Shown piece by piece: positions 3,240 to 63,657 of a stretch of DNA of 64,000 nucleotides (the stretch's first letter is position 1; each line of letters starts with the position of its first letter). The stretch comes from Arenicola marina (taxonomy: Eukaryota; Annelida; Polychaeta; Arenicolidae). The notes beneath the pieces are model-generated. The model was not told the origin of the DNA. It ran no database searches and saw only the letters and a list, made by a program, of their open reading frames with translations. The stretch is from contig OZ025252.1 in NCBI GenBank assembly GCA_964019135.1, positions 10,308,823 to 10,372,822 on the forward strand. Direction: 5' to 3'. Position numbers and translations under genes: made by a program.

Positions 3240-3266
3240 GTATTCGGCAATGGAGGAAGGGCCGAT

Positions 3267-6200: not shown

Positions 6201-6659
6201 GTTGTATGGCATTTTTGTGATATGAAAAATATGCGTAAGATTGAAAAGATACAGGAGCGGGCATTGAGGTATGTGTTTAATGACTTTAGATCAGAATACG
6301 CAGAGTTGAGGAAGAGAGCGGGTAGACCATTGCTATATGTTGAACGATTGCGCTGCATATCATTAGAAGTTTACAAGAGTATCAACAAGATTGGGCCTAG
6401 TTATCTTCATGACATGTATAACGTGAAGGAAAACAATTACATTTTAAAAAATGGGCCAAATATATGTATGCCACGCGTTAAGACAACAGCTTATGACCAT
6501 AATTCATTGAAGTATCAAGGTAGCAAGCTATGGAACATGCTCAACAAGGAAACGAAGTTAGCCAAATCTGCCAAGGAATTTAAAACAACGCTGTCAACCT
6601 CGGATGTGTTCTTGTGTCACTGTAATTCGTGCACATTATGTAACATAGCTAATGGGTAA
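3267..6659 (+). CDS. LINE ORF2 protein: endonuclease and reverse transcriptase
   Basis: 1,130 codons, uninterrupted. It nicks target DNA and copies LINE RNA onto the nick (target-primed reverse transcription). Endonuclease landmarks: ININS at 172-176, QETK with catalytic Glu200, GDLN at 309-312, and SDFHH from Ser371 with catalytic Asp372 and His. Reverse transcriptase: LKGIDVSKASGYDKIHP near 628-645, NYRPVSVLP, motif A DLSKAFD with Asp758, motif B APQGS from 815, motif C YADD at 846-849 with both catalytic aspartates. The thumb-like tail has SHFNYCPVVW and ends in a Cys cluster (C1117, C1119, C1122, C1125). No RNase H domain is seen. About 165 residues precede the endonuclease, an acidic extension unlike the usual short leader. 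The extension is open from the first Met after the ORF1 stop, and several internal Mets (for example residue 30) could also serve as starts. Base composition is clearly AT-richer than ORF1. All key catalytic residues are present, so the protein looks potentially active. Confidence 0.95.
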   Translation: MLSDGSTDDLILCSKSDLHFMNEGSCQCDFTGQLGSKAHILSDLTDTDVAHCNDELCFMEDDMSRDVLTIPCKVKESKDILSRAADSVRYRPDQPFMMNEDHTCAPTDIIATPKNNEVRYDPTSVQDCRNHEKVSERQENLVAAIEANEDEELFGLAPFHQRNVKNLKIAHININSVRHKFGPLSQALGKGALDVLFIQETKLDDSFPAGQFTLNGYKVHRNDNTDSSGGIMVQVRDDIPHRRRKDIEINEDEKGRIESLAIEVTLNAEKWLFLSVYKQPKVKNALLVTKIDSLLNAIAAEQVNLVLLGDLNVNMLNHKNCLNDVLEVYGTKNIVKSPTCFKGKIPTLIDVVITNVSKRLRDVSCIDTGLSDFHHMVCVATKIEVPIRQQKRVYYRSFKHFDEIKYKDDLASVPFHVGEVFEDVDDSYWFCSTLIKEVVDRHAPTKQRVVKNNCVPYMNSHLRKAINVKNMLRRKYEQLSSQENREKYRKQRNLIGRLRKVSMQKYIKGKCSEATTNGKEFWKVVKPLISRKNASSGNVLLKERDEIISDPSKVSDIFNQYFIDVAKDIGQLDDIPDDQPIDETLLYHKDHKSVMAIKEGNQGITETFNFRAVSSHEIYNALKGIDVSKASGYDKIHPKLIKLGAAILCEPLRCVLNMTINCNTFPKELKYAEVTPIFKKKDNLNKENYRPVSVLPCISKIYEQILCDQLMSFMEPRLSPRLSGLRKGHSCQSLLMRLVEDFKNALDNNQVMGAILMDLSKAFDCLPHRLLITKMNAYGISKQSCTLVASYLTNREQRVKLGHNRSEWLTLKKGAPQGSVFGPHLYNVFTNDLLVSTARGTDKYNYADDNTVAAQGKEFKKVKVTLEKALSEITTWFVDNYMKANPSKYQAIVFEKRNELSQHRSFSISGTELAAQQEVTLLGIQLDARLTFGNHISSLCKKAGKSLNVLARVSKLMDVDSKLTLFHAFILSHFNYCPVVWHFCDMKNMRKIEKIQERALRYVFNDFRSEYAELRKRAGRPLLYVERLRCISLEVYKSINKIGPSYLHDMYNVKENNYILKNGPNICMPRVKTTAYDHNSLKYQGSKLWNMLNKETKLAKSAKEFKTTLSTSDVFLCHCNSCTLCNIANG

Positions 6660-6830
6660 GGTTTTATGAGATGCAAAGATTGTTATATTTTCATTGTCTT
6701 ATGTATATATATCTCATCCGCTCATGTCATTTTATCATTGTCTGTCAATAGCACGTGTGCTAATGTTTATTGTTGACTTTTACATACCGAGGTTAAATAA
6801 AACTTTATCTTATCTTATCTTATCCTATGT
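6660..6830 (+). other. LINE 3'UTR, AATAAA signal and TTATC tail
   Basis: About 170 bp of AT-rich sequence follow the ORF2 stop. AATAAA lies at 6,796-6,801. From 6,804 the element ends in TTATC repeats (about four, the last imperfect), then CTATG passes into satellite sequence. CR1/L2-group elements end in short tandem repeats recognised by their reverse transcriptase, so this tail is the likely priming end. Confidence 0.85.
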
Positions 6831-38437: not shown

Positions 38438-40930
38438 AGCATCATGATGACGTCTCTCAGCCCGAGGGCCCCCCATACAGAGAGCCCCCGTACTACACAC
38501 TGAGCCACCCCCCCCCCCACACACACACACTGAGGCCCCCATGATGACGTCTCTCAGCCCGAGGGCCCCCCATACAGAGAGCCCCCGTACTACACACTGA
38601 GCCCCCCCCCCACACACACACACACTGAGGCCCCCATGATGACGTCTCTCAGCCCGAGGGCCCCCCATACAGAGAGCCCCCGTACTACACACTGAGGCCC
38701 CCCCCACACACACACACACACTGAGGCCCCCATGATGACGTCTCTCAGCCCGAGGGCCCCCCATACAGAGAGCCCCCGTACTACACACTGAGCCCCCCCC
38801 CCACACACACACACACTGAGGCCCCCATGATGACGTCTCTCAGCCCGAGGGCCCCCCATACAGAGAGCCCCCGTACTACACACTGAGGCCCCCCCCCCAC
38901 ACACACACACACTGAGGCCCCCATGATGACGTCTCTCAGCCCGAGGGCCCCCCATACAGAGAGCCCCCGTACTACACACTGAGGCCCCCCCCCCACACAC
39001 ACACACACACTGAGGCCCCCATGATGACGTCTCTCAGCCCGAGGGCCCCCCATACAGAGAGCCCCCGTACTACACACTGAGGCCCCCCCCCCCCACACAC
39101 ACACACTGAGGCCCCCATGATGACGTCTCTCAGCCCGAGGGCCCCCCATACAGAGAGCCCCCGTACTACACACTGAGGCCCCCCCCCCCACACACACACA
39201 CACACTGAGGCCCCCATGATGACGTCTCTCAGCCCGAGGGCCCCCCATACAGAGAGCCCCCGTACTACACACTGAGCCACCCCCCGCCCCCACACACACA
39301 CACTGAGGCCCCCATGATGACGTCTCTCAGCCCGAGGGCCCCCCATACAGAGAGCCCCCGTACTACACACTGAGCCCCCCCCCCCCCCCACACACACACA
39401 CTGAGGCCCCCATGATGACGTCTCTCAGCCCGAGGGCCCCCCATACAGAGAGCCCCCGTACTACACACTGAGGCCCCCCCCCCCCACACACACAAACTGA
39501 GGCCCCCATGATGACGTCTCTCAGCCCGAGGGCCCCCCATACAGAGAGCCCCCGTACTACACACTGAGCCCCCCCCCACACACACACTGAGGCCCCCATG
39601 ATGACGTCTCTCAGCCCGAGGGCCCCCCATACAGAGAGCACCCGTACTACACACTGAGCCACCCCCCCACCCCCACACACACACTGAAGCCCCTACCACA
39701 CACTGAGGCCCCCATGATGACGTCTCTCAGCCCGAGGGCCCCCCATACAGAGAGCCCCCGTACTACACACTGAGCCCCCCCCCCCCGACACACACACACA
39801 CTGAGGCCCCCATGATGACGTCTCTCAGCCCGAGGGCCCCCCATACAGAGAGCCCCCGTACTGCACAATGAGCCACCCCCCCCCCCACACACACACTAAA
39901 GCCCCTACCTCACACTAAGGCCCCCCTACCATACACTGAAGCCCCCATGATGACGTCTCTCAGCCCGAGGGCCCCCCATACAGAGAGCCCCCGTACTACA
40001 CACTAAGCCACCCCCCCCCACACACACACACACACTGAAGCCTCTACCACACACTGAGGCCCCCCTACCATACACTGAAGCCCCCATGATGACGTCTCTC
40101 AGCCCGAGGGCCCCCCATACAGAGAGCCCCCGTACTACACACTGAGCCACCCCCATCCCCCCCCCCCACACACACACACTGAAGCCCCTACCACACACTG
40201 AGGCCCCCATGATGACGTCTCTCAGCCCGAGGGCCCCCCATACAGAGAGCCCCCGTACTACACACTGAGCCACCCCCCACCCACACACACACACTGAGGC
40301 CCCCATGATGACGTCTCTCAGCCCGAGGGCCCCCCAAACAGAGAGCTCCCGTACTACACACTGAGCCACCCCCCACCCACACACACACACTAAAGCCCCT
40401 ACCACACACTGAGGCCCCTATGAGGACGTCTCTCAGCCCGAGGGCCCCCCAAACAGAGAGCTCCCGTACTACACACTGAGCCACCCCCCCCCCCCCCCAC
40501 ACACACACTGAGGCCCCCCTACCATAGACTGAAGCCCCCATGATGACGTCTCTCAGCCCGAGGGCCCCCCATACAGAGAGCCCCCGTACTACACACTGAG
40601 CCACCCCACCCCCACACACACACACACTGAGGCCCCCATGATGACGTCTCTCAGCCCGAGGGCCCCCCATACAGAGAGCCCCCGTACTACACACTGAGGC
40701 CCCCCCCCCACACACACACACTGAGGCCCCCATGATGACGTCTCTCAGCCCGAGGGCCCCCCATACAGAGAGCCCCCGTACTACACACTGAGCCACCCCC
40801 CACCCACACACACACACTGAAGCCCCTACCACACACTGAGGCCCCCATGATGACGTCTCTCAGCCCGAGGGCCCCCCATACAGAGAGGCCCCGTACTACA
40901 CAATGAGCCACCCCCCCCACTCCCCACACA
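38438..40930. repeat. Roughly 96-bp minisatellite with variable C-run and CA-run (about 24 copies)
   Basis: The constant part begins ATGATGACGTCTCTCAGCCC and continues with GAGGGCCCCCCATACAGAG, AGCCCCCGTACTACACACTG, then a run of C and a run of CA of varying length. Spacing of the ATGATGACG start is 95-99 bp to about 39,600; after that extra pieces such as ACACTGAAGCCCCTACCA lengthen many units to 120-140 bp. Opposed-strand Cys/Gly-rich open frames are by-products. Confidence 0.95.
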
Positions 40931-41083
40931 CACTGAAGCCTCTACCACACATTGAAGCCCCCCTACCGTACACTGAAGCCCCATACACACTGAAGCCCCC
41001 CTACCGTACACTGAGGCCCTCATATACTGAGCCCACCTACCGTACACTGAAGCCCCATACACACTGAAGCCCCCCAAACAGAC
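40931..41083. repeat. Transition zone between the 96-bp and 74-bp arrays
   Basis: Short irregular pieces of ACACTGAAGCCCC, CCCCCCTACCGTACACTGA and CATACACACTGAAGCC. They resemble the insert pieces of the right part of the 96-bp array and sub-parts of the 74-bp unit. Confidence 0.8.
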
Positions 41084-44000
41084 AGAAGGTTCGCTACGCA
41101 TACTGAGCCCCCCTACCATACACTGAAGCCCCTACACGCTGAGCCCCCCAAACAGACAGAAGGTTCGCTACGCATACTGAGCCCCCCTACCACACACTGA
41201 AGCCCCTACACGCTGAGCCCCCCAAACAGACAGAAGGTTCGCTACGCATACTGAGCCCCCCTACCATACACTGAAGCCCCTACACGCTGAGCCCCCCAAA
41301 CAGACAGAAGGTTCGCTACGCATACTGAGCCCCCCTACCATACACTGAAGCCCCTACACGCTGAGCCCCCAAACAGACAGAAGGTTCGCTACGCATACTG
41401 AGCCCCCCTACCACACACTGAAGCCCCTACACGCTGAGCCCCCCAAACAGACAGAAGGTTCGCTACGCATACTGAGCCCCCCTACCATACACTGAAGCCC
41501 CTACACGCTGAGCCCCCCAAACAGACAGAAGGTTCGCTACGCATACTGAGCCCCCCTACCACACACTGAAGCCCCTACACGCTGAGCCCCCCAAACAGAC
41601 AGAAGGTTCGCTACGCATACTGAGCGCCCCTACCACACACTGAAGCCCCTACACGCTGAGCCCCCCAAACAGACAGAAGGTTCGCTACGCATACTGAGCC
41701 CCCCTACCATACACTGAAGCCCCTACACGCTGAGCCCCCCAAACAGACAGAAGGTTCGCTACGCATACTGAGCCCCCCTACCATACACTGAAGCCCCTAC
41801 ACGCTGAGCCCCCCAAACAGACAGAAGGTTCGCTACGCATACTGAGCCCCCCTACCACACACTGAAGCCCCTACACGCTGAGCCCCCCAAACAGACAGAA
41901 GGTGCGCTACGCATACTGAGCCCCCCTACCACACACTGAAGCCCCTACACGCTGAGCCCCCCAAACAGACAGAAGGTTCGCTACGCATACTGAGCCCCCC
42001 TACCACACACTGAAGCCCCTACACGCTGAGCCCCCCAAACAGACAGAAGGTTTGCTACGCATACTGAGCCCCCCTACCACACACTGAAGCCCCTACACGC
42101 TGAGCCCCCCAAACAGACAGAAGGTTCGCTACGCATACTGAGCCCCCCTACCATACACTGAAGCCCCTACACGCTGAGCCCCCCAAACAGACAGAAGGTT
42201 CGCTACGCATACTGAGCCCCCCTACCACACACTGAAGCCCCTACACGCTGAGCCCCCCAAACGGACAGAAGGTTCGCTACGCATACTGAGCCCCCCTACC
42301 ACACACTGAAGCCCCTACACGCTGAGCCCCCCAAACAGACAAAAGGTTCGCTACGCATACTGAGCGCCCCTACCACACACTGAAGCCCCTACACGCTGAG
42401 CCCCCCAAACAGACAGAAGGTTCGCTACGCATACTGAGCCCCCCTACCATACACTGAAGCCCCTACACGCTGAGCCCCCCAAACAGACAGAAGGTTCGCT
42501 ACGCATACTGAGCCCCCCTACCACAAACTGAAGCCCCTACACGCTGAGCCCCCCAAACAGACAGAAGGTTCGCTACGCATACTGAGCCCCCCTACCACAC
42601 ACTGAAGCCCCTACACGCTGAGCCCCCCAAACAGACAGAAGGTTCGCTACGCATACTGAGCCCCCCTACCATACACTGAAGCCCCTACACGCTGAGCCCC
42701 CCAAACAGACAGAAGGTTCGCTACGCATACTGAGCCCCCCTACCATACACTGAAGCCCCTACACGCTGAGCCCCCAAACAGACAGAAGGTTTGCTACGCA
42801 TACTGAGCCCCCCTACCATACACTGAAGCCCCTACACGCTGAGCCCCCCAAACAGACAGAAGGTTCGCTACGCATACTGAACCCCCCTACCACACACTGA
42901 AGCCCCTACACGCTGAGCCCCCCAAACAGACAGAAGGTTCGCTACGCATACTGAGCCCCCCTACCATACACTGAAGCCCCTACACGCTGAGCCCCCCAAA
43001 CAGACAGAAGGTTCGCTACGCATACTGAGCCCCCCTACCATACACTGAAGCCCCTACACGCTGAGCCCCCCAAACAGACAGAAGGTTCGCTACGCATACT
43101 GAGCCCCCCTACCATACACTGAAGCCCCTACACGCTGAGCCCCCCAAACAGACAGAGGGTTCGCTAAGCATACTGAGCCCCCCTACCATACACTGAAGCC
43201 CCTACACGCTGAGCCCCCCAAACAGACAGAAGGTTCGCTACGCATACTGAGCCCCCCTACCACACACTGAAGCCCCTACACGCTGAGCCCCCCAAACAGA
43301 CAGAAGGTTCGCTACACATAATGAGCCCCCCTACCACACACTGAAGCCCCTACACGCTGAGCCCCCCAAACAGACAGAAGGTTCGCTACGCATACTGAGC
43401 TCCCCTACCACACACTGAAGCCCCTACACGCTGAGCCCCCCAAACAGACAGAAGGTTCGCTACGCATACTGAGCCCCCCTACCATACACTGAAGCCCCTA
43501 CACGCTGAGCCCCCCAAACAGACAGAAGGTTCGCTACGCATACTGAGCCCCCCTACCACACACTGAAGCCCCTACACGCTGAGCCCCCCAAACAGACAGA
43601 AGGTTCGCTACGCATACTGAGCCCCCCTACCATACACTGAAGCCCCTACACGCTGAGCCCCCCAAACAGACAGAAGGTTCGCTACGCATACTGAGCCCCC
43701 CTACCACACACTGAAGCCCCTACACGCTGAGCCCCCCAAACAGACAGAAGGTTCGCTACGCATACTGAGCCCCCCTACCATACACTGAAGCCCCTACACG
43801 CTGAGCCCCCCAAACAGGCAGAAGGTTCGCTGCGCATACTGAGCCCCCCTACCATACACTGAAGCCCCTACACGCTGAGCCCCCCAAACAGACAGAAGGT
43901 TCGCTACGCATACTGAGCGCCCCTACCACACACTGAAGCCCCTACACGCTGAGCCCCCCAAACAGACAGAAGGTTCGCTACGCATACTGAGCCCCCCTAC

Positions 44001-47000
44001 CACACACTGAAGCCCCTACACGCTGAGCCCCCCAAACAGACAGAGGGTTCGCTACGCATACTGAGCCCCCCTACCACACACTGAAGCCCCTACACGCTGA
44101 GCCCCCCAAACAGACAGAAGGTTCGCTACGCATACTGAGCCCCCCTACCACACACTGAAGCCCCTACACGCTGAGCCCCCCAAACAGACAGAAGGTTCGC
44201 TACGCATACTGAGCCCCCCTACCATACACTGAAGCCCCTACACGCTGAGCCCCCCAAACAGACAGAAGGTTCGCTACGCATACTGAGCCCCCCTACCATA
44301 CACTGAAGCCCCTACACGCTGAGCCCCCCAAACAGACAGAAGGTTCGCTACGCATACTGAGCCCCCCTACCACACACTGAAGCCCCTACACGCTGAGCCC
44401 CCCAAACAGACAGAAGGTTCGCTACGCATACTGAGCCCCCCTACCACACACTGAAGCCCCTACACGCTGAGCCCCCCAAACAGACAGAAGGTTCGCTACG
44501 CATACTGAGCCCCCCTACCACACACTGAAGCCCCTACACGCTGAGCCCCCCAAACAGACAGAAGGTTCGCTACGCATACTGAGCCCCCCTACCACACACT
44601 GAAGCCCCTACACGCTGAGCCCCCCAAACAGACAGAAGGTTCGCTACGCATACTGAGCTCCCCTACCACACACTGAAGCCCCTACACGCTGAGCCCCCCA
44701 AACAGACAGAAGGTTCGCTACGCATACTGAGCCCCCCTACCATACACTGAAGCCCCTACACGCTGAGCCCCCAAACAGACAGAAGGTTCGCTACGCATAC
44801 TGAGCTCCCCTACCACACACTGAAGCCCCTACACGCTGAGCCCCCCAAACAGACAGAAGGTTCGCTACGCATACTGAGCCCCCCTACCATACACTGAAGC
44901 CCCTACACGCTGAGCCCCCCAAACAGACAGAAGGTTCGCTACGCATACTGAGCCCCCCTACCACACACTGAAGCCCCTACACGCTGAGCCCCCCAAACAG
45001 ACAGAAGGTTCGCTACGCATACTGAGCCCCCCTACCATACACTGAAGCCCCTACACGCTGAGCCCCCCAAACAGACAGAAGGTTCGCTACGCATACTGAG
45101 CCCCCCTACCACACACTGAAGCCCCTACACGCTGAGCCCCCCAAACAGACAGAAGGTTCGCTACGCATACTGAGCCCCCCTACCACACACTGAAGCCCCT
45201 ACACGCTGAGCCCCCCAAACAGACAGAAGGTTTGCTACGCATACTGAGCCCCCCTACCATACACTGAAGCCCCTACACGCTGAGCCCCCCAAACAGACAG
45301 AAGGTTCGCTACGCATACTGAGCCCCCCTACCATACACTGAAGCCCCTACACGCTGAGCCCCCCAAACAGACAGAAGGTTCGCTACGCATACTGAGCCCC
45401 CCTACCACACACTGAAGCCCCTACACGCTGAGCCCCCCAAACAGACAGAAGGTTCGCTACGCATACTGAGCGCCCCTACCACACACTGAAGCCCCTACAC
45501 GCTGAGCCCCCCAAACAGACAGAAGGTTCGCTACGCATACTGAGCCCCCCTACCATACACTGAAGCCCCTACACGCTGAGCCCCCCAAACAGACAGAAGG
45601 TTCGCTACGCATACTGAGCCCCCCTACCATACACTGAAGCCCCTACACGCTGAGCCCCCCAAACAGACAGAAGGTTCGCTACGCATACTGAGCCCCCCTA
45701 CCACACACTGAAGCCCCTACACGCTGAGCCCCCCAAACAGACAGAAGGTGCGCTACGCATACTGAGCCCCCCTACCACACACTGAAGCCCCTACACGCTG
45801 AGCCCCCCAAACAGACAGAAGGTTCGCTACGCATACTGAGCCCCCCTACCACACACTGAAGCCCCTACACGCTGAGCCCCCCAAACAGACAGAAGGTTTG
45901 CTACGCATACTGAGCCCCCCTACCACACACTGAAGCCCCTACACGCTGAGCCCCCCAAACAGACAGAAGGTTCGCTACGCATACTGAGCCCCCCTACCAT
46001 ACACTGAAGCCCCTACACGCTGAGCCCCCCAAACAGACAGAAGGTTCGCTACGCATACTGAGCCCCCCTACCACACACTGAAGCCCCTACACGCTGAGCC
46101 CCCCAAACGGACAGAAGGTTCGCTACGCATACTGAGCCCCCCTACCACACACTGAAGCCCCTACACGCTGAGCCCCCCAAACAGACAAAAGGTTCGCTAC
46201 GCATACTGAGCGCCCCTACCACACACTGAAGCCCCTACACGCTGAGCCCCCCAAACAGACAGAAGGTTCGCTACGCATACTGAGCACCCCTACCATACAC
46301 TGAAGCCCCTACACGCTGAGCCCCCCAAACAGACAGAAGGTTCGCTACGCATACTGAGCCCCCCTACCACAAACTGAAGCCCCTACACGCTGAGCCCCCC
46401 AAACAGACAGAAGGTTCGCTACGCATACTGAGCCCCCCTACCACACACTGAAGCCCCTACACGCTGAGCCCCCCAAACAGACAGAAGGTTCGCTACGCAT
46501 ACTGAGCCCCCCTACCATACACTGAAGCCCCTACACGCTGAGCCCCCCAAACAGACAGAAGGTTCGCTACGCATACTGAGCCCCCCTACCATACACTGAA
46601 GCCCCTACACGCTGAGCCCCCAAACAGACAGAAGGTTTGCTACGCATACTGAGCCCCCCTACCATACACTGAAGCCCCTACACGCTGAGCCCCCCAAACA
46701 GACAGAAGGTTCGCTACGCATACTGAACCCCCCTACCACACACTGAAGCCCCTACACGCTGAGCCCCCCAAACAGACAGAAGGTTCGCTACGCATACTGA
46801 GCCCCCCTACCATACACTGAAGCCCCTACACGCTGAGCCCCCCAAACAGACAGAAGGTTCGCTACGCATACTGAGCCCCCCTACCATACACTGAAGCCCC
46901 TACACGCTGAGCCCCCCAAACAGACAGAAGGTTCGCTACGCATACTGAGCCCCCCTACCATACACTGAAGCCCCTACACGCTGAGCCCCCCAAACAGACA

Positions 47001-50000
47001 GAGGGTTCGCTACGCATACTGAGCCCCCCTACCATACACTGAAGCCCCTACACGCTGAGCCCCCCAAACAGACAGAAGGTTCGCTACGCATACTGAGCCC
47101 CCCTACCACACACTGAAGCCCCTACACGCTGAGCCCCCCAAACAGACAGAAGGTTCGCTACACATAATGAGCCCCCCTACCACACACTGAAGCCCCTACA
47201 CGCTGAGCCCCCCAAACAGACAGAAGGTTCGCTACGCATACTGAGCTCCCCTACCACACACTGAAGCCCCTACACGCTGAGCCCCCCAAACAGACAGAAG
47301 GTTCGCTACGCATACTGAGCCCCCCTACCATACACTGAAGCCCCTACACGCTGAGCCCCCCAAACAGACAGAAGGTTTGCTACGCATACTGAGCCCCCCT
47401 ACCACACACTGAAGCCCCTACACGCTGAGCCCCCCAAACAGACAGAAGGTTCGCTACGCATACTGAGCCCCCCTACCATACACTGAAGCCCCTACACGCT
47501 GAGCCCCCCAAACAGACAGAAGGTTCGCTACGCATACTGAGCCCCCCTACCACACACTGAAGCCCCTACACGCTGAGCCCCCCAAACAGACAGAAGGTTC
47601 GCTACGCATACTGAGCCCCCCTACCATACACTGAAGCCCCTACACGCTGAGCCCCCCAAACAGGCAGAAGGTTCGCTGCGCATACTGAGCCCCCCTACCA
47701 TACACTGAAGCCCCTACACGCTGAGCCCCCCAAACAGACAGAAGGTTCGCTACGCATACTGAGCGCCCCTACCACACACTGAAGCCCCTACACGCTGAGC
47801 CCCCCAAACAGACAGAAGGTTCGCTACGCATACTGAGCCCCCCTACCACACACTGAAGCCCCTACACGCTGAGCCCCCCAAACAGACAGAGGGTTCGCTA
47901 CGCATACTGAGCCCCCCTACCACACACTGAAGCCCCTACACGCTGAGCCCCCCAAACAGACAGAAGGTTCGCTACGCATACTGAGCCCCCCTACCACACA
48001 CTGAAGCCCCTACACGCTGAGCCCCCCAAACAGACAGAAGGTTCGCTACGCATACTGAGCCCCCCTACCATACACTGAAGCCCCTACACGCTGAGCCCCC
48101 CAAACAGACAGAAGGTTCGCTACGCATACTGAGCCCCCCTACCATACACTGAAGCCCCTACACGCTGATCCCCCCAAACAGACAGAAGGTTCGCTACGCA
48201 TACTGAGCCCCCCTACCACACACTGAAGCCCCTACACGCTGAGCCCCCCAAACAGACAGAAGGTTCGCTACGCATACTGAGCCCCCCTACCACACACTGA
48301 AGCCCCTACACGCTGAGCCCCCCAAACAGACAGAAGGTTCGCTACGCATACTGAGCCCCCCTACCACACACTGAAGCCCCTACACGCTGAGCCCCCCAAA
48401 CAGACAGAAGGTTCGCTACGCATACTGAGCCCCCCTACCACACACTGAAGCCCCTACACGCTGAGCCCCCCAAACAGACAGAAGGTTCGCTACGCATACT
48501 GAGCTCCCCTACCACACACTGAAGCCCCTACACGCTGAGCCCCCCAAACAGACAGAAGGTTCGCTACGCATACTGAGCCCCCCTACCATACACTGAAGCC
48601 CCTACACGCTGAGCCCCCAAACAGACAGAAGGTTCGCTACGCATACTGAGCTCCCCTACCACACACTGAAGCCCCTACACGCTGAGCCCCCCAAACAGAC
48701 AGAAGGTTCGCTACGCATACTGAGCCCCCCTACCATACACTGAAGCCCCTACACGCTGAGCCCCCCAAACAGACAGAAGGTTCGCTACGCATACTGAGCC
48801 CCCCTACCACACACTGAAGCCCCTACACGCTGAGCCCCCCAAACAGACAGAAGGTTCGCTACGCATACTGAGCCCCCCTACCATACACTGAAGCCCCTAC
48901 ACGCTGAGCCCCCCAAACAGACAGAAGGTTCGCTACGCATACTGAGCCCCCCTACCACACACTGAAGCCCCTACACGCTGAGCCCCCCAAACAGACAGAA
49001 GGTTCGCTACGCATACTGAGCCCCCCTACCACACACTGAAGCCCCTACACGCTGAGCCCCCCAAACAGACAGAAGGTTTGCTACGCATACTGAGCCCCCC
49101 TACCATACACTGAAGCCCCTACACGCTGAGCCCCCCAAACAGACAGAAGGTTCGCTACGCATACTGAGCCCCCCTACCACACACTGAAGCCCCTACACGC
49201 TGAGCCCCCCAAACAGACAGAAGGTTCGCTACGCATACTGAGCCCCCCTACCACAAACTGAAGCCCCTACACGCTGAGCCCCCCAAACAGACAGAAGGTT
49301 CGCTACGCATACTGAGCCCCCCTACCACACACTGAAGCCCCTACACGCTGAGCCCCCCAAACAGACAGAAGGTTCGCTACGCATACTGAGCTCCCCTACC
49401 ACACACTGAAGCCCCTACACGCTGAGCCCCCCAAACAGACAGAAGGTTCGCTACGCATACTGAGCCCCCCTACCACACACTGAAGCCCCTACACGCTGAG
49501 CCCCCCAAACAGACAGAAGGTTCCCTACGCATACTGAGCCCCCCTACCATACACTGAAGCCCCTACACGCTGAGCCCCCCAAACAGACAGAAGGTTCGCT
49601 ACGCATACTGAGCCCCCCTACCATACACTGAAGCCCCTACACGCTGAGCCCCCCAAACAGACAGAAGGTTCGCTACGCATACTGAGCCCCCCTACCATAC
49701 ACTGAAGCCCCTACACGCTGAGCCCCCCAAGCAGACAGAAGGTTCGCTACGCATACTGAGCCCCCCTACCATACACTGAAGCCCCTACACGCTGAGCCCC
49801 CCAAACAGACAGAAGGTTCGCTACGCATACTGAGCCCCCCTACCATACACTGAAGCCCCTACACGCTGAGCCCCCAAACAGACAGAAGGTTTGCTACGCA
49901 TACTGAGCCCCCCTACCATACACTGAAGCCCCTACACGCTGAGCCCCCCAAACAGACAGAAGGTTCGCTACGCATACTGAACCCCCCTACCATACACTGA

Positions 50001-53000: not shown

Positions 53001-56000
53001 ATACTGAGCCCCCCTACCATACACTGAAGCCCCTACACGCTGAGCCCCCCAAACAGACAGAAGGTTCGCTACGCATACTGAGCCCCCCTACCACACACTG
53101 AAGCCCCTACACGCTGAGCCCCCCAAACAGACAGAAGGTTCGCTACGCATACTGAGCCCCCCTACCATACACTGAAGCCCCTACACGCTGAGCCCCCCAA
53201 ACAGACAGAAGGTTCGCTACGCATACTGAGCCCCCCTACCATACACTGAAGCCCCTACACGCTGATCCCCCCAAACGGACAGAAGGTTCGCTACGCATAC
53301 TGAGCCCCCCTACCACACACTGAAGCCCCTACACGCTGAGCCCCCCAAACAGACAGAAGGTTTGCTACGCATACTGAGCCCCCCTACCATACACTGAAGC
53401 CCCTACACGCTGAGCCCCCCAAACAGACAGAAGGTTCGCTACGCATACTGAGCCCCCGTACCACACACTGAAGCCCCTACACGCTGAGCCCCCCAAACAG
53501 ACAGAAGGTTCGCTACGCATACTGAGCCCCCCTACCATACACTGAAGCCCCTACACGCTGAGCCCCCCAAACAGACAGAAGGTTCGCTACGCATACTGAG
53601 CCCCCCTACCACACACTGAAGCCCCTACACGCTGAGCCCCCCAAACAGACAGAAGGTTCGCTACGCATACTGAGCCCCCCTACCACACACTGAAGCCCCT
53701 ACACGCTGAGCCCCCCAAACAGACAGAAGGTTCGCTACGCATACTGAGCCCCCCTACCATACACTGAAGCCCCTACACGCTGAGCCCCCCAAACAGACAG
53801 AAGGTTCGCTACGCATACTGAGCCCCCCTACCACACACCGAAGCCCCTACACGCTGAGCCCCCCAAACAGACAGAAGGTTCGCTACGCATACTGAGCCCC
53901 CCTACCATACACTGAAGCCCCTACACGCTGAGCCCCCCAAACAGACAGAAGGTTCGCTACGCATACTGAGCCCCCCTACCACACACTGAAGCCCCTACAC
54001 GCTGAGCCCCCCAAACAGACAGAAGGTTCGCTACGCATACTGAGCCCCCCTACCATACACTGAAGCCCCTACACGCTGAGCCCCCCAAAACAGACAGAAG
54101 GTTCGCTACGCATACTGAGCCCCCCTACCATACACTGAAGCCCCTACACGCTGAGCCCCCCAAACGGACAGAAGGTTCGCTACGCATACTGAGCCCCCCT
54201 ACCACACACTGAAGCTTTGCTACGCATACTGAGCCCCCATACCATACACTGAAGCCCCTACGCGCTGAGCCCCCCTACCATACACTGAAGCCCCTACGCG
54301 CTGAGCCCCCCAAACAGACAGAAGGTTCGCTACGCATACTGAGCCCCCCTACCACACACTGAAGCCCCTACGCGCTGAGCCCCACAAACGGACAGAAGGT
54401 TCGCTACGCATACTGAGCCCCCCTACCACACACTGAAGCCCCTACACGCTGAGCCCCCCAAACAGACAGAAGGTTCGCTACGCATACTGAGCCCCCCTAC
54501 CACACACTGAAGCCCCTACACGCTGAGCCCCCCAAACAGACAAAAGGTTCGCTACGCATACTGAGCCCCCCTACCATACACTGAAGCCCCTACACGCTGA
54601 GCCCCCCAAACAGACAGAAGGTTCGCTACGCATACTGAGCCCCCCTACCACACACTGAAGCCCCTACACGCTGAGCCCCCCAAACAGACAGAAGGTTCGC
54701 TACGCATACTGAGCCCCCCTACCATACACTGAAGCCCCTACACGCTGAGCCCCCCAAACAGACAGAAGGTTCGCTACGCATACTGAGCCCCCCTACCACA
54801 CGCTGAAGCCCCTACACGCTGAGCCCCCCAAACAGACAGAAGGTTCGCTACGCATACTGAGCCCCCCTACCATACACTGAAGCCCCTACACGCTGAGCCC
54901 CCCAAACAGACAGAAGGTTCGCTACGCATACTGAGCCCCCCTACCATACACTGAAGCCCCTACACGCTGAGCCCCCCAAACACACAGAAGGTTCGCTACG
55001 CATACTGAGCCCCCCTACCACACACTGAAGCCCCTACACGCTGAGCCCCCCAAACAGACAGAAGGTTCGCTACGCATACTGAGCCCCCCTACCATACACT
55101 GAAGCCCCTACACGCTGAGCCCCCCAAACAGACAGAAGGTTCGCTACGCATACTGAGCCCCCCTACCACACACTGAAGCCCCTACACGCTGAGCCCCCCA
55201 AACAGACAGAAGGTTCGCTACGCATACTGAGCCCCCCTACCATACACTGAAGCCCCTACACGCTGAGCCCCCCAAACAGACAGAAGGTTCGCTACGCATA
55301 CTGAGCCCCCCTACCACACACTGAAGCCCCTACACGCTGAGCCCCCCAAACAGACAGAAGGTTCGCTACGCATACTGAGCCCCCCTACCACACACTGAAG
55401 CCCCTACACGCTGAGCCCCCCAAACAGACAGAAGGTTCGCTACGCATACTGAGCCCCCCTACCACACACTGAAGCCCCTACACGCTGAGCCCCCCAAACA
55501 GACAGAAGGTTCGCTACGCATACTGAGCCCCCCTACCATACACTGAAGCCCCTACACGCTGAGCCCCCCAAACAGACAGAAGGTTCGCTACGCATACTGA
55601 GCCCCCCTACCATACACTGAAGCCCCTACACGCTGAGCCCCCAAACGGACAGAAGGTTCGCTACGCATACTGAGCCCCCCTACCACACACTTAAGCCCCT
55701 ACACGCTGAGCCCCCCAAACAGACAGAAGGTTCGCTACGCATACTGAGCCCCCCTACCACACACTGAAGCCCCTACACGCTGAGCCCCCCAAACAGACAG
55801 AAGGTTCGCTACGCATACTGAGCCCCCCTACCATACACTGAAGCCCCTACACGCTGAGCCCCCAAACGGACAGAAGGTTCGCTACGCATACTGAGCCCCC
55901 CTACCACAAACTGAAGCCCCTACACGCTGAGCCCCCCAAACAGACAGAAGGTTCGCTACGCATACTGAGCCCCCCTACCACACACTGAAGCCCCTACACG

Positions 56001-57985
56001 CTGAGCCCCCAAACAGACAGAAGGTTCGCTACGCATACTGAGTCCCCCTACCATACACTGAAGCCCCTACACGCTGAGCCCCCCAAACAGACAGAAGGTT
56101 CGCTACGCATACTGAGCCCCACTACCACACACTGAAGCCCCTACACGCTGGGCCCCCCAAACAGACAGAAGGTTCGCTACGCATACTGAGCCCCCCTACC
56201 ATACACTGAAGCCCCTACACGCTGAGCCCCCCAAACAGACAGAAGGTTCGCTACGCATACTGAGCCCCCCTACCATACACTGAAGCCCCTACACGCTGAG
56301 CCCCCCAAACAGACAGAAGGTTCGCTACGCATACTGAGCCCCCCTACCACACACTGAAACCCCTACACGCTGAGCCCCCAAACAGACAGAAGGTTCGCTA
56401 CGCATACTGAGCCCCCCTACCACACACTGAAGCCCCTACACGCTGAGCCCCCCAAACAGACAGAAGGTTCGCTACGCATACTGAGCCCCCCTACCACAAA
56501 CTGAAGCCCCTACACGCTGAGCCCCCCAAACAGACAGAAGGTTCGCTACGCATACTGAGCCCCCCTACCATACACTGAAGCCCCTACACGCTGAGCCCCC
56601 CAAACAGACAGAAGGTTCGCTACGCATACTGAGCCCCCCTACCACACACTGAAGCCCCTACACGCTGAGCCCCCCAAACAGACAGAAGGTTCGCTACGCA
56701 TACTGAGCCCCCCTACCATACACTGAAGCCCCTACACGCTGAGCCCCCCAAACAGACAGAAGGTTCGCTACGCATACTGAGCCCCCCTACCATACACTGA
56801 AACCCCTACACGCTGAGCCCCCCAAACAGACAAAAGGTTCGCTACGCATACTGAGCCCCCCTACCACACACTGAAGCCCCTACACGCTGAGCCCCCCAAA
56901 CAGACAGAAGGTTCGCTACGCATACTGAGCCCCCCTACCATACACTGAAGCCCCTACACGCTGAGCCCCCCAAACAGACAGAAGGTTCGCTACGCATACT
57001 GAGCGCCCCTACCACACACTGAAGCCCCTACACGCTGAGCCCCCGAAACAGACAGAAGGTTCGCTACGCATACTGAGCCCCCCTACCACACACTGAAGCC
57101 CCTACACGCTGAGCCCCCCAAACAGACAGAAGGTTCGCTACGCATACTGAGCCCCCCTACCATACACTGAAGCCCCTACACGCTGAGCCCCCCAAACAGA
57201 CAGAAGGTTCGCTACGCATACTGAGCCCCCCTACCATACACTGAAGCCCCTACACGCTGAGCCCCCCAAACAGACAGAAGGTTCGCTACGCATACTGAGC
57301 CCCCCTACCATACACTGAAGCCCCTACACGGTGAGCCCCCCAAACAGACAGAAGGTTCGCTACGCATACTGAGCCCCCCTACCACACACTGAAGCCCCTA
57401 CACGCTGAGCCCCCCAAACAGACAGAAGGTTCGCTACGCATACTGAGCCCCCCTACCATACACTGAAGCCCCTACACGCTGAGCCCCCCAAACAGACAGA
57501 AGGTTCGCTACGCATACTGAGCCCCCCTACCATACACTGAAGCCCCTACACGCTGAGCCCCCCAAACAGACAGAAGGTTCGCTACGCATACTGAGCCCCC
57601 CTACCATACACTGAAGCCCCTACACGCTGAGCCCCCCAAACAGACAGAAGGTTCGCTACGCATACTGAGCCCCCCTACCACACACTGAAACCCCTACACG
57701 CTGAGCCCCCCAAACAGACAGAAGGTTTGCTACGCATACTGAGCCCCCCTACCATACACTGAAGCCCCTACGCGCTGAGCCCCCCAAACAGACAGAAGGT
57801 TCGCTACGCATACTGAGCCCCCCTGCCACACACTGAAGCCCCTACACGCTGAGCCCCCCAAACAGACAGAAGGTTCGCTACGCATACTGAGCCCCCCTAC
57901 CACACACTGAAGCCCCTACACGCTGAGCCCCCCAAACAGACAGAAGGTTCGCTACGCATACTGAGCCCCCCTACCATACACTGAA
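41084..57985. repeat. 74-bp satellite array (about 228 units)
   Basis: Units marked by ACAGACAGAAGGTTCGCTAC, GCATACTGAGCCCCCCTACC, AYACACTGAAGCCCCTACAC and GCTGAGCCCCCCAA. The main polymorphism is CCATACAC versus CCACACAC; rarer markers are GAGCGCCCC, GAGCTCCCC, GGTTTGC, GGTGCGC, AACGGAC, ACAAAAGG, CACAAACTG and 73-bp units short of one C. The unit has stops in all frames, so no long open frame crosses these 17 kb. A disturbed patch at 54,210-54,375 has fused, shortened units with CTACGCGCTG. No gene or RNA is seen inside. Confidence 0.98.
41480..49176. repeat. Near-perfect 3,846-bp tandem duplication within the 74-bp array
   Basis: Rare marker units recur with an exact offset of 3,846 bp, about 52 units including two 73-bp ones. 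GAGCGCCCC is at 41,621/45,467, 42,361/46,207 and 43,914/47,760; GGTGCGC at 41,901/45,747; CCACAAACTG at 42,521/46,367; CACATAATGAG at 43,315/47,161. Homology begins near 41,480 and the second copy ends near 49,110-49,176. I saw only about four or five differences (for example near 43,166, 43,530, 44,322 and 46,284). A third, rearranged partial copy appears to follow from about 49,250. Confidence 0.9.
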
Positions 57986-58310
57986 GCCCCCCCCCCACAC
58001 ACTGGGGCCCCAATACACATTGCGGTCCCCATATACTAACCCCCCTACCACACACTGAGCCCGCCTACCATACACTGAAGCCTCCCTTCACACTGAGCCG
58101 CTCCACACAGGCCCTTCACACATTGAGGCCCCCCACACACTGATGCCCCCCCCCACCACACACACTGATGCCCTTCCACACACTGATGCCCCCTGCCACA
58201 CACTGATGCCGCCTGCCACACACTGATGCCCCCTGCCACACACGGAGACCCCCTGCCACACACGGAGGCCCCCTGCCACACAATGTGCCCCCCTACACAC
58301 TGAGTCCCTC
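57986..58310. repeat. Transition zone with a small irregular minisatellite
   Basis: After a C-run near 57,988 the sequence holds loose CACACTGAGCC and CACTGAAGCC pieces. About six imperfect repeats of ACACACTGATGCCCCCTGCC-like units (20-26 bp) follow at 58,131-58,275, ending in variants ACACGGAGRCC. It links the 74-bp and 38-bp arrays. Confidence 0.8.
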
Positions 58311-60287
58311 TACCACACACTGTGGTCCCCCTACACCCTGAGTCCCTCTACCACACACTGTGGTCCCCCTACACCCTGAGTCCCTCTACCACACACTGTG
58401 GCCCCCCTACACACTGAGTCCCTCTACCACACACTGTGGCCCCCCTACACACTGAGTCTCACTACCACACAGTGTGGCCCCCCTACACACTGAGTCCCAC
58501 TACCACACACTGTGGCCCCCCTACACACTGAGTCCCTCTACCACACACTGTGGCCCCCCTACACCCTGAGTCCCTCCACCACACACTGTGGCCCCCCTAC
58601 ACACTGAGTCCCTCTACCACACACTGTGGCCCCCCTACACACTGAGTCCCACTACCACACAGTGTGGCCCCCCTACACACTGAGGCCCTCTACCACACAC
58701 TGTGGCCCCCCTACACACTGAGTCCCACTACCACACATGGTGGCCCCCCTACACACTGAGGCCCTCTACCACACACTGTGGCCCCCCTACACACTGAGGC
58801 CCTCTACCACACACTGTGGCCCCCATACACACTGAGTCCCTATACCACACACTGTGGCCCCCCTACACACTGAGTCCCACTACCACACATGGTGGCCCCC
58901 CTACACACTGAGGCCCTCTACCACACACTGTGGCCCCCCTACACACTGAGGCCCTCTACCACACACTGTGGCCCCCATACACACTGAGTCCCTATACCAC
59001 ACACTGTGGCCTCCCTACACACTGAGTCCCTCTACCACACACTGTGGCCCCCCTACACACTGAGTCCCTCTACCACACACTGTGGCACCCCTACACACTG
59101 AGTCCCTCCACCACACACTGTGGCCCCCCTACACACTGAGTCCCTCTACCACACACTGTGGCCCCCCTACACACTGAGTCCCTCTACCACACACTGTGGC
59201 CCCCCTACACACTGAGTCCCTCCACCACACACTGTGGCCCCCCTACACACTGAGTCCCTATACCACACACTGTGGCCCCCCTACACACTGAGTCCCTCTA
59301 CCACACACTGTGGCCCCCCTACACACTGAGTCCCTCCACCACACACTGTGGCCCCCCTACACACTGAGTCCCTCCATCACACACTGTGGCCCCCATACAC
59401 ACTGAGTCCCTATACCACACACTGTGGCCTCCCTACACACTGAGTCCCTCTACCACACACTGTGGCCCCCCTACACACTGAGTCCCTCTACCACACACTG
59501 TGGCCCCCCTACACACTGAGGCCCTCTACCACACACTGTGGCCCCCCTACACACTGAGTCCCTCCACCACACACTGTGGCCCCCCTACACACTGAGTCCC
59601 TCCATCACACACTGTGGCCCCCCTACACACTGAGTCCCTCTACCACACACTGTGGCCCCCCTACACACTGAGTCCCTCTACCACACACTGTGGCCCCCCT
59701 ACACACTGAGTCCCTCTACCACACACTGTGGCCCCCCTACACACTGAGTCCCTCTACCACACACTGTGGCCCCCCTACACACTGAATCCCTCTACCACAC
59801 ACTGTGACCCCCCTACACACTGATGCCCTCCATCACACACTGTGGCCCCCCTACACACTGAGTCCCTCTACCACACACTGTGACCCCCCTACACACTGAG
59901 GCCCTCTACCACACACTGTGGCCCCCCTACACACTGAGGCCCTCTACCACACACTGTGGCCCCCCTACACCCTGAGTCCCTCTGCCACACCCCGTGGCCC
60001 TCTACCACACACTGAGCCCCTCTACCACACACTGTGGCCCCCCTACACACTGAATCCCTCTACCACACACTGTGGCCCCCCTACACACTGAGGCCCTCTA
60101 CCACACACTGTGGCCCCCATACACACTGAGTCCCTATACCACACCCTGTGGCCCCCCTACACACTGAGGCCCTCTACCACACACTGTGGCCCCCCTACAC
60201 CCTGAGTCCCTCTGCCACACCCTGTGGCCCTCTACCACACACTGAGCCCCTCTACCACACACTGAGCCCCCCACCACACTGAGCCTC
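58311..60287. repeat. 38-bp minisatellite (about 52 copies)
   Basis: Units marked by CCCCCCTACACACTGAGTCC and CTCTACCACACACTGTGG. Variants are GAGGCCCTC, GAGTCCCAC, CTCCACC, CTATACC and CCATACAC, several of which recur in the same order. A few units near 59,990-60,020 and 60,205-60,265 are shortened. Confidence 0.96.
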
Positions 60288-60470
60288 CCAAACAGACGGA
60301 AGGGTCCCCACGCATACTGAGACCCACACACAGACAAAGGACCCCCCACACACTGAGACCTCCACGCACACAGACTGAGGGCCCCCCCCCAGAAACAGAC
60401 AAAGGACCCCCCACACACTGAGACCTCCACACACACAGAGGACCCCTACACACAGACTGAGGACCCCGCA
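60288..60470. repeat. Transition zone holding a diverged piece of the 74-bp unit
   Basis: From 60,288 the string CCAAACAGACGGAAGGGTCC and then CCACGCATACTGAG matches the 74-bp core (CCAAACAGACAGAAGGTTCG, CTACGCATACTGAG) with few changes. It is followed by AGACAAAGGACCCCCCACAC pieces, twice, that lead into the 21-bp array. Confidence 0.85.
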
Positions 60471-63400
60471 CACACAGACTGAGGACCCCCCACACACAGC
60501 CTGAGGGCCACCACACACCGACTGAGGGCCACCACACACCGACTGAGGGCCCCCACACACAGACTGAGGACCCCCCCACACACAGCCTGAGGGCCCCCAC
60601 ACACCGACTGAGGGCCCCCACACACAGACTGAGGACCCCGCACACACAGCCTGAGGACCCCCCACACACAGACTGAGGGCCCCCACACACAGACTAAGGG
60701 GCCTCACACACAGACTGAGGGCCCCCACACACAGACTGAGGACCCCGCACACGCAGACTGAGGACCCCCCACACACAGCCTGAGGGCCCCCACACACAGA
60801 CTGAGGGCCACCACACACCGACTGAGGGCCCCCACACACAGACTGAGGACCCCGCACACACAGATTGAGGACCCCCCACACACAGACTGAGGACCCCGCA
60901 CACACAGACTGAGGGCCACCACACACAGACTGAGGGCCCCCACACACAGACTGAGGACCCCGCACACACAGATTGAGGACCCCCCACACACAGACTGAGG
61001 ACCCCGCACACACAGACTGAGGGCCACCACACACCGACTGAGGACCCCCACACACAGACTGAGGGCCCCCACACACAGACTGAGGGCCCCCACACACAGC
61101 CTGAGGGCCCCCACACACAGACTGAGGGCCACCACACACCGACTGAGGGCCCCCACACACAGCCTGAGGGCCCCCACACACAGACTGAGGGCCACCACAC
61201 ACCGACTGAGGGCCCCCACACACAGACTGAGGACCCCGCACACGCAGACTGAGGACCCCCCACACACAGCCTGAGGGCCCCCACACACAGACTGAGGGCC
61301 ACCACACACCGACTGAGGGCCCCCACACACAGACTGAGGACCCCGCACACACAGACTGAGGACCCCCCACACACAGCCTGAGGACCCCGCACACAGGCTG
61401 AGGGCCACCACACACCGACTGAGGGCCACCACACACAGACTGAGGGCCACCACACACCGACTGAGGGCCCCCACACACAGCCTGAGGACCCCGCACACAC
61501 AGACTGAGGACCCCCCACACACAGCCTGAGGGCCCCCACACACAGACTGAGGGCCACCACACACCGACTGAGGGCCCCCACACACAGACTGAGGACCCCG
61601 TACACACAGACTGAGGACCCCCCACACACAGCCTGAGGGCCCCCCACACACAGCCTGAGGACCCCGCACACAGACTGAGGGCCACCACACACAGACTGAG
61701 GGCCCCGTACACACAGACTGAGGACCCCCCACACACAGCCTGAGGGCCCCCACACACAGACTGAGGGCCACCACACACCGACTGAGGGCCCCGTACACAC
61801 AGACTGAGGACCCCGTACACACAGACTGAGGGCCCCCACACACAGACTGAGGGCCACCACACACCGACTGAGGGCCCCCACACACAGACTGAGGACCCCG
61901 TACACACAGACTGAGGACCCCCCACACACAGCCTGAGGGCCCCCACACACAGACTGAGGGCCACCACACACCGACTGAGGGCCCCCACACACAGACTGAG
62001 GGCCCCGTACACACAGACTGAGGACCCCACACACGGACTGAGGGCCCCTCCCACACACAGACTGAGGACCCCCCACACACAGCCTGAGGGCCCCCACACA
62101 CAGACTGAGGGCCACCACACACCGACTGAGGGCCCCCACACACAGACTGAGGACCCCGTACACACAGACTGAGGACCCCCCACACACAGCCTGAGGGCCC
62201 CCACACACAGACTGAGGGCCACCACACACCGACTGAGGGCCCCCACACACAGACTGAGGGCCCCGTACACACAGACTGAGGACCCCCCACACACAGCCTG
62301 AGGGCCCCCACACACAGACTGAGGACCCCCCCACACAGACTGAGGGCCCCCACACACAGACTGAAGGCCACCACACACCGACTGAGGACCCCCCACACAC
62401 AGCCTGAGGGCCCCCACACACAGACTGAGGGCCACCACACACCGACTGAGGGCCCCCACACACAGACTGAGGGCCCCGTACACACAGACTGAGGACCCCC
62501 CACACACAGCCTGAGGGCCCCCACACACAGACTGAGGGCCCCCACACACAGACTGAGGGCCCCCACACACAGACTGAAGGCCACCACACACCGACTGAGG
62601 ACCCCCCACACACCGACTGAGGGCCCCCACACACCGACTGAGGGCCCCCACACACCGACTGAGGGCCCCCACACACAGACTGAGGACCCCCCACACACAG
62701 ACTGAGGACCCCCCCACACACAGCCTGAGGGCCCCCACACACAGACTGAGGGCCACCACACACCGACTGAGGGCCACCACACACAGACTGAGGGCCCCCA
62801 CACACAGACTGAGGACCCCCCACACACAGACTGAGGACCCCGCACACACAGCCTGAGGGCCCCCACACACAGACTGAGGGCCACCACACACCGACTGAGG
62901 GCCCCCACACACAGACTGAGGACCCCCCACACACAGATTGAGGACCCCCCACACAGACTGAGGGCCCCCACACACAGACTAAGGGGCCTCACACACAGAC
63001 TGAGGGCCCCCACACACAGACTGAGGGCCCCCACACACAGACTGAAGGCCCCCACACACAGACTGAGGGTCCCCACACACAGACTGAGGGCCCCCACACA
63101 CAGACTGAGGGCCACCACACACCGACTGAGGGCCCCCACACACAGATTGAGGACCCCCCACACAGACTGAGGGCCCCCACACACAGACTAAGGGGCCCCA
63201 CACACAGACTCAGGGCCTCCACACATAGACTTAGGACTTCCCACGCCCAGACTGAGGGCCCCCACACACAGACTGAGGGCCCCCACACACAGACTGAGGG
63301 CCCCCACACACAGACTAAGGGGCCCCCACACACAGACTGAGGGCCCCACACACAGACTGAGGGCCCCACACACAGACTGAGGGCCCCTCCCACACACAGA

Positions 63401-63657
63401 CTGAGGACCCCACACACGGACTGAGGGCCCCTCCCACACACAGACTGAGGGCCCCTCCCTCACAGACTGAGGGCCCCTCCCACACACAGACTGAGGGCCC
63501 CTCCCACACACAGACTGAGGACCCCACACACAGACTGAGGGCCCCTCCCACACACAGACTGAGGTCCCCACACACAGAATGAGGGCCCCTCCCACACACA
63601 GACTGAGGACCCCACACACAGACTGAGGGCCCTCCCCCCCCCCCCCCACACAGATTA
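60471..63657. repeat. 21/22-bp minisatellite (about 150 copies) with a 107-bp pentameric order
   Basis: The basic unit is GAGGGCCCCCACACACAGAC plus T. Subtypes are GAGGGCCACCACACACCGACT, GAGGACCCCGCACACACAG and GAGGACCCCCCACACACAG. In 60,700-62,900 five subtypes recur in fixed order (21+21+21+22+22 = about 107 bp), many times and with deletions. From about 63,180 the order is lost and GAGGGCCCCTCCCACACACAG units dominate. Opposed-strand Cys/Val/Trp-rich open frames of up to 907 codons are by-products. Confidence 0.95.

What the first reader, a model, noticed from the sequence alone, without database searches (positions are those of the whole stretch)
38438..63657. A 25-kb relay of four satellites that share one core
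Arrays with units of about 96, 74, 38 and 21 bp lie head to tail. All contain an ACACACTGAG core followed by a C-run. The joins (40,931-41,083; 57,986-58,310; 60,288-60,470) hold intermediate, irregular pieces. This looks like successive satellites re-seeded from parts of a previous one, leaving the parental forms side by side. No unrelated DNA separates them, unlike the arrays at 28-37 kb.
Basis: partly seen in the sequence, partly recalled or inferred. Interest (0 to 1): 0.75.

Follow-up and report, generated by a model that had tools for sequence, protein, structure and literature searches.

The report
Four nested minisatellites, one short ancestor
A 25-kb stretch of an animal chromosome consists of four neighbouring tandem repeats that most likely grew at this spot from one roughly 20-base repeat; the process is well known, but the genome around it seems unusually full of such repeats.

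Summary
The tract is real: arrays of about 96, 74, 38 and 21 bp run from 38,443 to about 63,650 with no unrelated DNA between them. The four units together are more alike than shuffles allow (0 of 500 at 1-, 2- or 3-letter preservation) and mostly more alike than to 55 other arrays from the same genome; the 21-bp unit is the weakest case. All break down mostly into 15-30-bp monomers of one type (C-run, CA-rich, CTGAG/CTGAAG). Each array repeats a different group of them: higher-order repeats. Diagnostic words of all four (up to 3 mismatches) occur nowhere else in the 867-Mb assembly, so they most likely arose in place. The exact ACACACTGAG core is absent from the 74- and 21-bp arrays.

The directional "relay" is not supported: a diverged stretch of the 74-bp unit lies beyond the 38-bp array, the 21-bp unit is closest to that join, and the monomer network is branched. 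Best reading: one old mixed array of ~20-bp monomers, with different monomer groups amplified locally by unequal exchange or slippage.

Such processes are known. More unusual: about 27% of 24 random 5-kb samples is minisatellite (95% interval 17-38%).

The parts
38443..40938 (+). Array A (96-bp class): 24 units built from a 29-bp CATGATGACGTCTCTCAGCCCGAGG-containing monomer, a 17-bp, a 19-21-bp and a 24-38-bp monomer; 8 of the 12 units on the 3' side carry 1-2 or more extra 18-22-bp monomers, 0 of 12 on the 5' side
   Evidence: Fisher p 0.0013 on a split chosen after seeing the data
40939..41069 (+). Join 1: seven monomers; the first continues a long-form A unit, the other six form long-short dimers (21+17, 21+15, 21+17) resembling half of the 74-bp unit
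   Evidence: J1 dimer against B dimer 33/38, z 7.1
41070..57986 (+). Array B (74-bp): 227 units by one anchor; unit = 38-bp ACAGACAGAAGG dimer + 21-bp long + 15-bp short monomer; mean pairwise edit distance 2.15 per unit (2.9%), 51 distinct units
41415..49106 (+). Tandem duplication of about 52 units inside array B: copies offset by 3,846 bp, 1,025-bp exact run, 4 mismatches over one copy length; outer limits approximate
57987..58304 (+). Join 2: 17 irregular 14-25-bp monomers, five of them variants of GCCCCCTGCCACACACTGAT
58305..60227 (+). Array C (38-bp dimer: 21-bp long + 17-bp short monomer)
   Evidence: divergence between monomers at lag 1 0.338, at lag 2 0.061
60228..60462 (+). Join 3: 12 monomers, including a diverged copy of the 74-bp unit's 38-bp module (60,284-60,321) and two more diverged ones
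   Evidence: 78-80% identity to array B over about 134 bp; 33/38 identity, z 9.0, the other two 71% and 68%
60463..63657 (+). Array D (21-bp monomer, with a weak five-monomer, about 107-bp secondary period)
   Evidence: lag-5 divergence 0.091 against 0.129 at lag 1

Best explanation
One locus-private minisatellite with a monomer of about 15-21 bp (C-run, CA-rich middle, CTGAG or CTGAAG end) existed here first. Its monomers diverged into several types, giving a long mixed array. Different groups of neighbouring monomers were then amplified at different points: one group that includes a 29-bp module of unknown origin (96 bp), a four-monomer group (74 bp), a long-short dimer (38 bp), and single monomers with a weak five-monomer period (21 bp). 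The joins are leftover, less amplified stretches of the old array. Amplification was most likely by unequal sister-chromatid exchange, slippage or break-induced copying; the 3,846-bp duplication in the 74-bp array suggests that blocks of about 52 units were copied at once. SHOWN: common monomer type, privacy to the locus at up to 3 mismatches, higher-order structure, the duplication as assembled, 74-bp relics beyond the 38-bp array. INFERRED: the recombination or replication process, the single ancestor, and that the tract has no selected function.
For: Unit similarity beats shuffles and mostly beats 55 other arrays of the genome. Whole-genome pattern counts with up to 3 mismatches equal the window counts for all four diagnostic words: 227, 24, 49 and 82, none on the reverse strand, none for the reversed controls. 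A 24-base monomer word with up to 1 mismatch, found in arrays A and B and in join 1, has 237 matches in the genome and 237 in the window. A-B 72% identity over 174 bp; B-join 3 78-80% over about 134 bp. Join monomers lie at a mean nearest normalised distance of 0.14-0.26 from array monomers, against 0.45-0.49 for shuffled ones. Dimer phase: B-C 23 in phase, 12 swapped. Duplication. Extra B-like monomers occur only in the A units on the B side.
Against: The 21-bp array's kinship is weak once 3-letter composition is kept and rests partly on short words in join 3. The 29-bp module of array A has no relative here and its origin is unexplained. CA/C-rich repeats of about 20 bp with an ACACACTGA-like core exist elsewhere, for example C8:34,183,469-34,184,143, 69% over 660 query bases, E 2e-59, so a monomer of this look can arise or be present more than once. 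The monomer cutting rules were mine and were written after reading the sequence. No reads, other haplotype or related species were available.
Confidence: 0.78

Rival explanations
1. Directional relay as first proposed: each satellite was seeded from a part of the one before it, from one end to the other.
For: Neighbouring arrays A-B and B-C share long words and in-phase modules. Within-array divergence rises B 2.9%, C about 6% at lag 2, D about 13%, which a chain of different ages could give.
Against: 74-bp relics lie beyond the 38-bp array. The 21-bp unit is nearest to join 3, not to the 38-bp array. The network is branched. Array A is more diverged than B (4.1% among 16 units of near-median length against 2.1% in a sample of 120 of 226, after the same run-collapsing), so divergence is not monotonic.
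Confidence: 0.1
2. Independent origin: CA/C-rich slippage produced four look-alike satellites side by side.
For: This genome is rich in minisatellites, and CA/C-rich arrays of about 20 bp with similar cores occur at other loci. Some pairs with the 21-bp unit do not beat trinucleotide-preserving shuffles.
Against: Summed similarity is beyond all 500 shuffles of each kind. Words that are not low-complexity are shared across array borders (AAACAGAC..AAGG..CATACTGAG, 33/38). A monomer word is shared by arrays A and B and seen nowhere else. Of 19 sampled neighbouring arrays separated by other DNA, none was clearly related; the best two were reached by 3 and 17 of 200 shuffles.
Confidence: 0.07
3. 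Partial assembly artefact: the arrays exist, but their order, length or the 3,846-bp duplication was created by the assembler.
For: Arrays of 97% identity are hard to assemble, and the two 3.8-kb copies differ at only 4 positions over the copy length.
Against: The joins are single, irregular and specific, and array B holds 51 distinct units. The two copies are not identical. Reads were not available, so this remains open, above all for the duplication.
Confidence: 0.05
4. The tract serves a function (centromere core, regulatory or coding repeat).
For: Some arrays give long open frames, for example 907 aa on the minus strand across array D, whose 21-bp period is a multiple of 3.
Against: The units are private to one locus in 867 Mb, unlike a centromeric family shared by chromosomes. 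No Rfam match in the window at gathering thresholds. Array B, two thirds of the tract, has no ORF of 150 aa or more. Few G-quadruplex-type motifs with loops up to 7 (0-3 per array).
Confidence: 0.03

Closest known systems
Alpha-satellite higher-order repeats, including 'cascading' HORs (PMC11050224, passages read)
   Same: Groups of diverged monomers amplified as blocks; different HOR arrays on one chromosome, one extending into another (20mer into 15mer on human chromosome 15); monomer types repeated inside a unit.
   Different: Monomer about 20 bp, not 171 bp; no sign here of a family shared by chromosomes; 25 kb, not hundreds of kb; private to one locus.
Complex tandem repeats and minisatellites of human genomes (PMC10502081, passages read)
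   Same: Loci made of several distinct units, thought there to grow by slippage.
   Different: In that study complex loci of 500 bp or more tended to have units under 10 bp and single-unit loci tended to be minisatellites; here four long units share one monomer type.
Smith's unequal-crossover model and concerted evolution (as summarised in PMC8122249, passages read)
   Same: Predicts periodic arrays arising in place; homogenised higher-order units are an outcome of concerted evolution.
   Different: A model, not a sequence family; nothing here contradicts it.
Break-induced replication in alpha-satellite arrays (PMC11034957, abstract and outline seen)
   Same: A route, tested in a human cell line, for fast expansion and contraction of arrays.
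   Different: Not tested for this locus or organism.

Membership tests
Higher-order repeat (HOR) minisatellite | Units repeat in tandem | tested here: met
Higher-order repeat (HOR) minisatellite | Copies of the whole unit are more alike than the monomers inside a unit | tested here: met
   B: units differ by 2.9% while its two halves are 68% alike; C: 0.061 at lag 2 against 0.338 at lag 1. A: whole units of near-median length 4.1% apart. D: only a weak five-monomer period, 0.091 against 0.129
Higher-order repeat (HOR) minisatellite | Monomers share ancestry | tested here: met
   weakest for D, and the 29-bp module of A is not shown to be related
Centromeric satellite family (as alpha satellite) | Shared by many chromosomes | tested here: not met
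   diagnostic words only in this window
Centromeric satellite family (as alpha satellite) | Bound by CENP-A | not testable with these tools
   needs ChIP or CUT&RUN
Dispersed or transposed satellite | Same unit at several loci | tested here: not met
   227/24/49/82 genome matches, the same numbers in the window alone; looser 62-79% hits elsewhere exist
Hypervariable minisatellite (VNTR) | Copy number differs between individuals | not testable with these tools
   one assembled haplotype only

The most novel reading that the evidence does not exclude
The genome is under a general minisatellite drive (about a quarter of it), so in-place birth, splitting and re-amplification of tandem repeats is a main source of its DNA, and this tract preserves several steps of one such lineage side by side, which would let the birth of higher-order repeats be followed at one locus-private tract.
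Probability: 0.3. Interest if true: 0.55.

Novelty: new member of a known kind. Interest (0 to 1): 0.35.

Why it matters
It is a compact, assembled example of several higher-order repeats arising in place from one short monomer, with relic monomers between them and an apparently recent 52-unit block duplication. On its own it confirms known ideas of satellite turnover. The wider setting matters more: if the sample is representative, this animal's genome holds several times the share of tandem repeats that one published comparison found at most, and would be a good place to measure how such arrays are born.

Tried and rejected
Tried: (1) A genome-wide ACACTG/CACTG seed motif for minisatellites. 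Among 37 independent random-locus arrays ACACTG is in 4 against 0.6 expected, but it ranks only fourth among the 6-mers tested, and CACTGA is in 1 against 0.6; not claimed. (2) G-quadruplex or i-motif instability as driver: 0-3 motifs per array with loops up to 7; not supported. (3) A specific one-to-one match of array A's 37-bp module with B's 38-bp module: it beats shuffles (z 4.0), but A's module matches C's dimer (z 4.0) and two D monomers (z 4.6) as well; only general monomer kinship is claimed. (4) Edge-to-centre gradient in array B: the 15-unit bins show no trend, apart from one bin that is probably raised by the single 150-base unit. (5) Splice-donor words in random arrays: GGTRAG in 3 of 37 units, 2.3 expected; no general enrichment. 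(6) Naming the organism: COX1 reads with the invertebrate mitochondrial code, but no collection here allowed a species call. (8) Literature: searches gave no paper that I could tie to this genome or this locus; that is not evidence that none exists.

Caveats: 100 random positions were drawn in five lists of 20, on contigs C1-C14 only. I fetched 24 of them, each cut to its first 5 kb, before seeing any: 11 of list 1 (its first 12 without the ninth) and the first 13 of list 2. After single-letter shuffling of the same 24 loci TRF called 29 of 120,000 bases. The foreign set of 55 is 41 TRF arrays of the random loci (37 independent ones, as counted) plus 10 of the window and 4 downstream. The Fisher tests use counts that I read and typed in. 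Of the four abutting related pairs, three keep the same period (probably one array split by TRF); only L050 (52 to 136 bp) changes unit length. Nearest distances depend on how many distinct monomers each array has.
Full report
WHERE. The window is C5:10,308,823-10,372,822 of an 867-Mb, 762-contig genome. COX1 reads through with the invertebrate mitochondrial code, so it is most likely an animal with that code; I could not name it. The 25-kb tract lies in a cluster of minisatellites: 80% of the window is tandem repeat of period 9-150, the 51-bp array upstream fills the next 10 kb, and the 10 kb downstream hold further 14-, 37/50-, 18- and 28-bp arrays.

THE OBSERVATION. TRF and the raw sequence confirm the four arrays and the absence of unrelated DNA between them. 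The exact word ACACACTGAG is missing from the 74- and 21-bp arrays. What is shared is a monomer, mostly 15-30 bp, with a C-run and a CTGAG-like end.

MORE THAN CHANCE. Summed unit similarity is 148; the best of 500 circular shuffles reached 85, 95 and 118 with 1-, 2- and 3-letter preservation. Pairs involving the 21-bp unit are the weakest: at 3-letter preservation 110, 19 and 11 of 500 shuffles reach them. As a natural control I compared the four units with 55 other arrays (41 from random loci, 14 from the window and its downstream flank), both strands. Pairs among the 96-, 74- and 38-bp units (33, 32, 28) beat every foreign array (maximum 20). The 21-bp unit scores 20, 17 and 18 with its neighbours and at most 14 with foreign arrays, but the 38-bp unit has one foreign match at 20.

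PRIVATE TO THE LOCUS. Words of 26-36 bases from each unit were counted in the whole assembly with up to 3 mismatches: 227, 24, 49 and 82 matches, all forward, 0 for the reversed control (the listing for the first is capped, the count is whole). The same counts are found in the window alone. A 24-base monomer word shared by arrays A, B and join 1 has 237 matches, again the same number in the window. The units therefore did not come from, or spread to, another assembled place at this similarity. Looser searches do find CA/C-rich repeats elsewhere at 62-79% identity (several read). I cannot tell distant kinship from convergence there.

HIGHER-ORDER STRUCTURE. The 74-bp unit is a 38-bp dimer with ACAGACAGAAGG plus a 21-bp long and a 15-bp short monomer. 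The 38-bp unit is a long-short dimer, 31/38 identical to the 36-bp dimer of the 74-bp unit and in the same phase (23 against 12 when swapped). The 21-bp array has a weak five-monomer period (TRF 107 bp). The 96-bp units have a 29-bp module for which I found no relative. On the side facing the 74-bp array, 8 of 12 of these units carry extra 18-22-bp monomers; on the other side 0 of 12 do (p 0.0013 on a split chosen after seeing the data).

JOINS AND ORDER. Monomers of the three joins lie close to array monomers (mean nearest distance 0.14-0.26, shuffled 0.45-0.49). Join 3 holds a diverged copy of the 74-bp unit's 38-bp module (33/38; 78-80% over about 134 bp by BLAST), although the 38-bp array lies between it and the 74-bp array. 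The 21-bp unit is closest to monomers of join 3. The spanning network is branched. This fits an old mixed array in which different groups were amplified better than a chain from one end to the other. It does not fix the order in time.

TURNOVER. Array B has 51 distinct units among 227, no trend from edge to centre, and an excess of identical units at lag 52 (0.41 against 0.11-0.22 at the other ten lags tried). This is a 3,846-bp tandem duplication with 4 mismatches over one copy length. Block copying by unequal exchange or break-induced replication is the likeliest cause; an assembly duplication is not excluded.

THE WIDER GENOME. In 24 random 5-kb stretches, 26.7% of the bases lie in minisatellites with at least 4 copies and score at least 100 (bootstrap 95% interval 16.9-37.6%; 18 of 24 stretches hold such an array). 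Shuffled sequence gives 29 of 120,000 bases with the looser setting, against 28.6% in the real stretches with that setting. A cod genome paper states 0.5-3% tandem repeats as typical for eukaryotes and about 8-11% for cod, the highest of the assemblies it compared (PMC5241972, passages read; methods differ). In the same sample, abutting arrays were related in 4 of 4 pairs and separated ones in 0 of 19 clearly, though three of the four are probably one array split by TRF. So related abutting arrays are not surprising in this genome, and the finding looks like an elaborate case of a common process.

VERDICT. A real, well-resolved nest of higher-order minisatellites, most likely formed in place; a new member of a known kind. 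The relay in the strict sense is not supported.

Noticed in passing
24 random 5-kb loci L034-L057: About 27% of sampled bases (95% interval 17-38%) lie in minisatellites, far above the 0.5-3% that a cod genome paper gives as typical for eukaryotes.
   Followed up: partly
L042:1363-4965: A 61-bp minisatellite of about 57 copies overlaps the 3' end of a katanin-p60-like exon (PDB match 6b5c, E 2.8e-19; Pfam AAA) and its unit spans the exon end and a GTAAGT donor, like the 'mirages' described in amphioxus (PMC3087553, passages read).
   Followed up: partly
L036:432-922 and about L045:2840-4360: Two further arrays whose units look like repeated exon-intron borders (GTGAG after an open frame; TTGCAG/TTTCAG before a short open stretch). 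For the first Pfam gave only a match below cut-off; the second was not searched.
   Followed up: partly
window 1975-6830: A LINE-like retrotransposon (RT, Pfam RVT_1; upstream frame with a GDSL esterase domain; CCHC-like knuckles seen by eye only) lies inside the 51-bp satellite array, which continues on both sides.
   Followed up: partly
L050:159-1717: A 52-bp array runs directly into a 136-bp array that shares its unit, a second small example of a change of unit length within one tract.
   Followed up: no
C8:34,181,129-34,186,291 (L011, L012, L022): A 20-bp minisatellite on another chromosome with a CAGTGTGTGT core matches both the 38-bp and the 21-bp array queries at about 67-70%; distant kin or convergence is open.
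   Followed up: no
window 60,252-62,975, minus strand: A 907-aa open frame across the 21-bp array, probably a mechanical result of a period divisible by 3.
   Followed up: no
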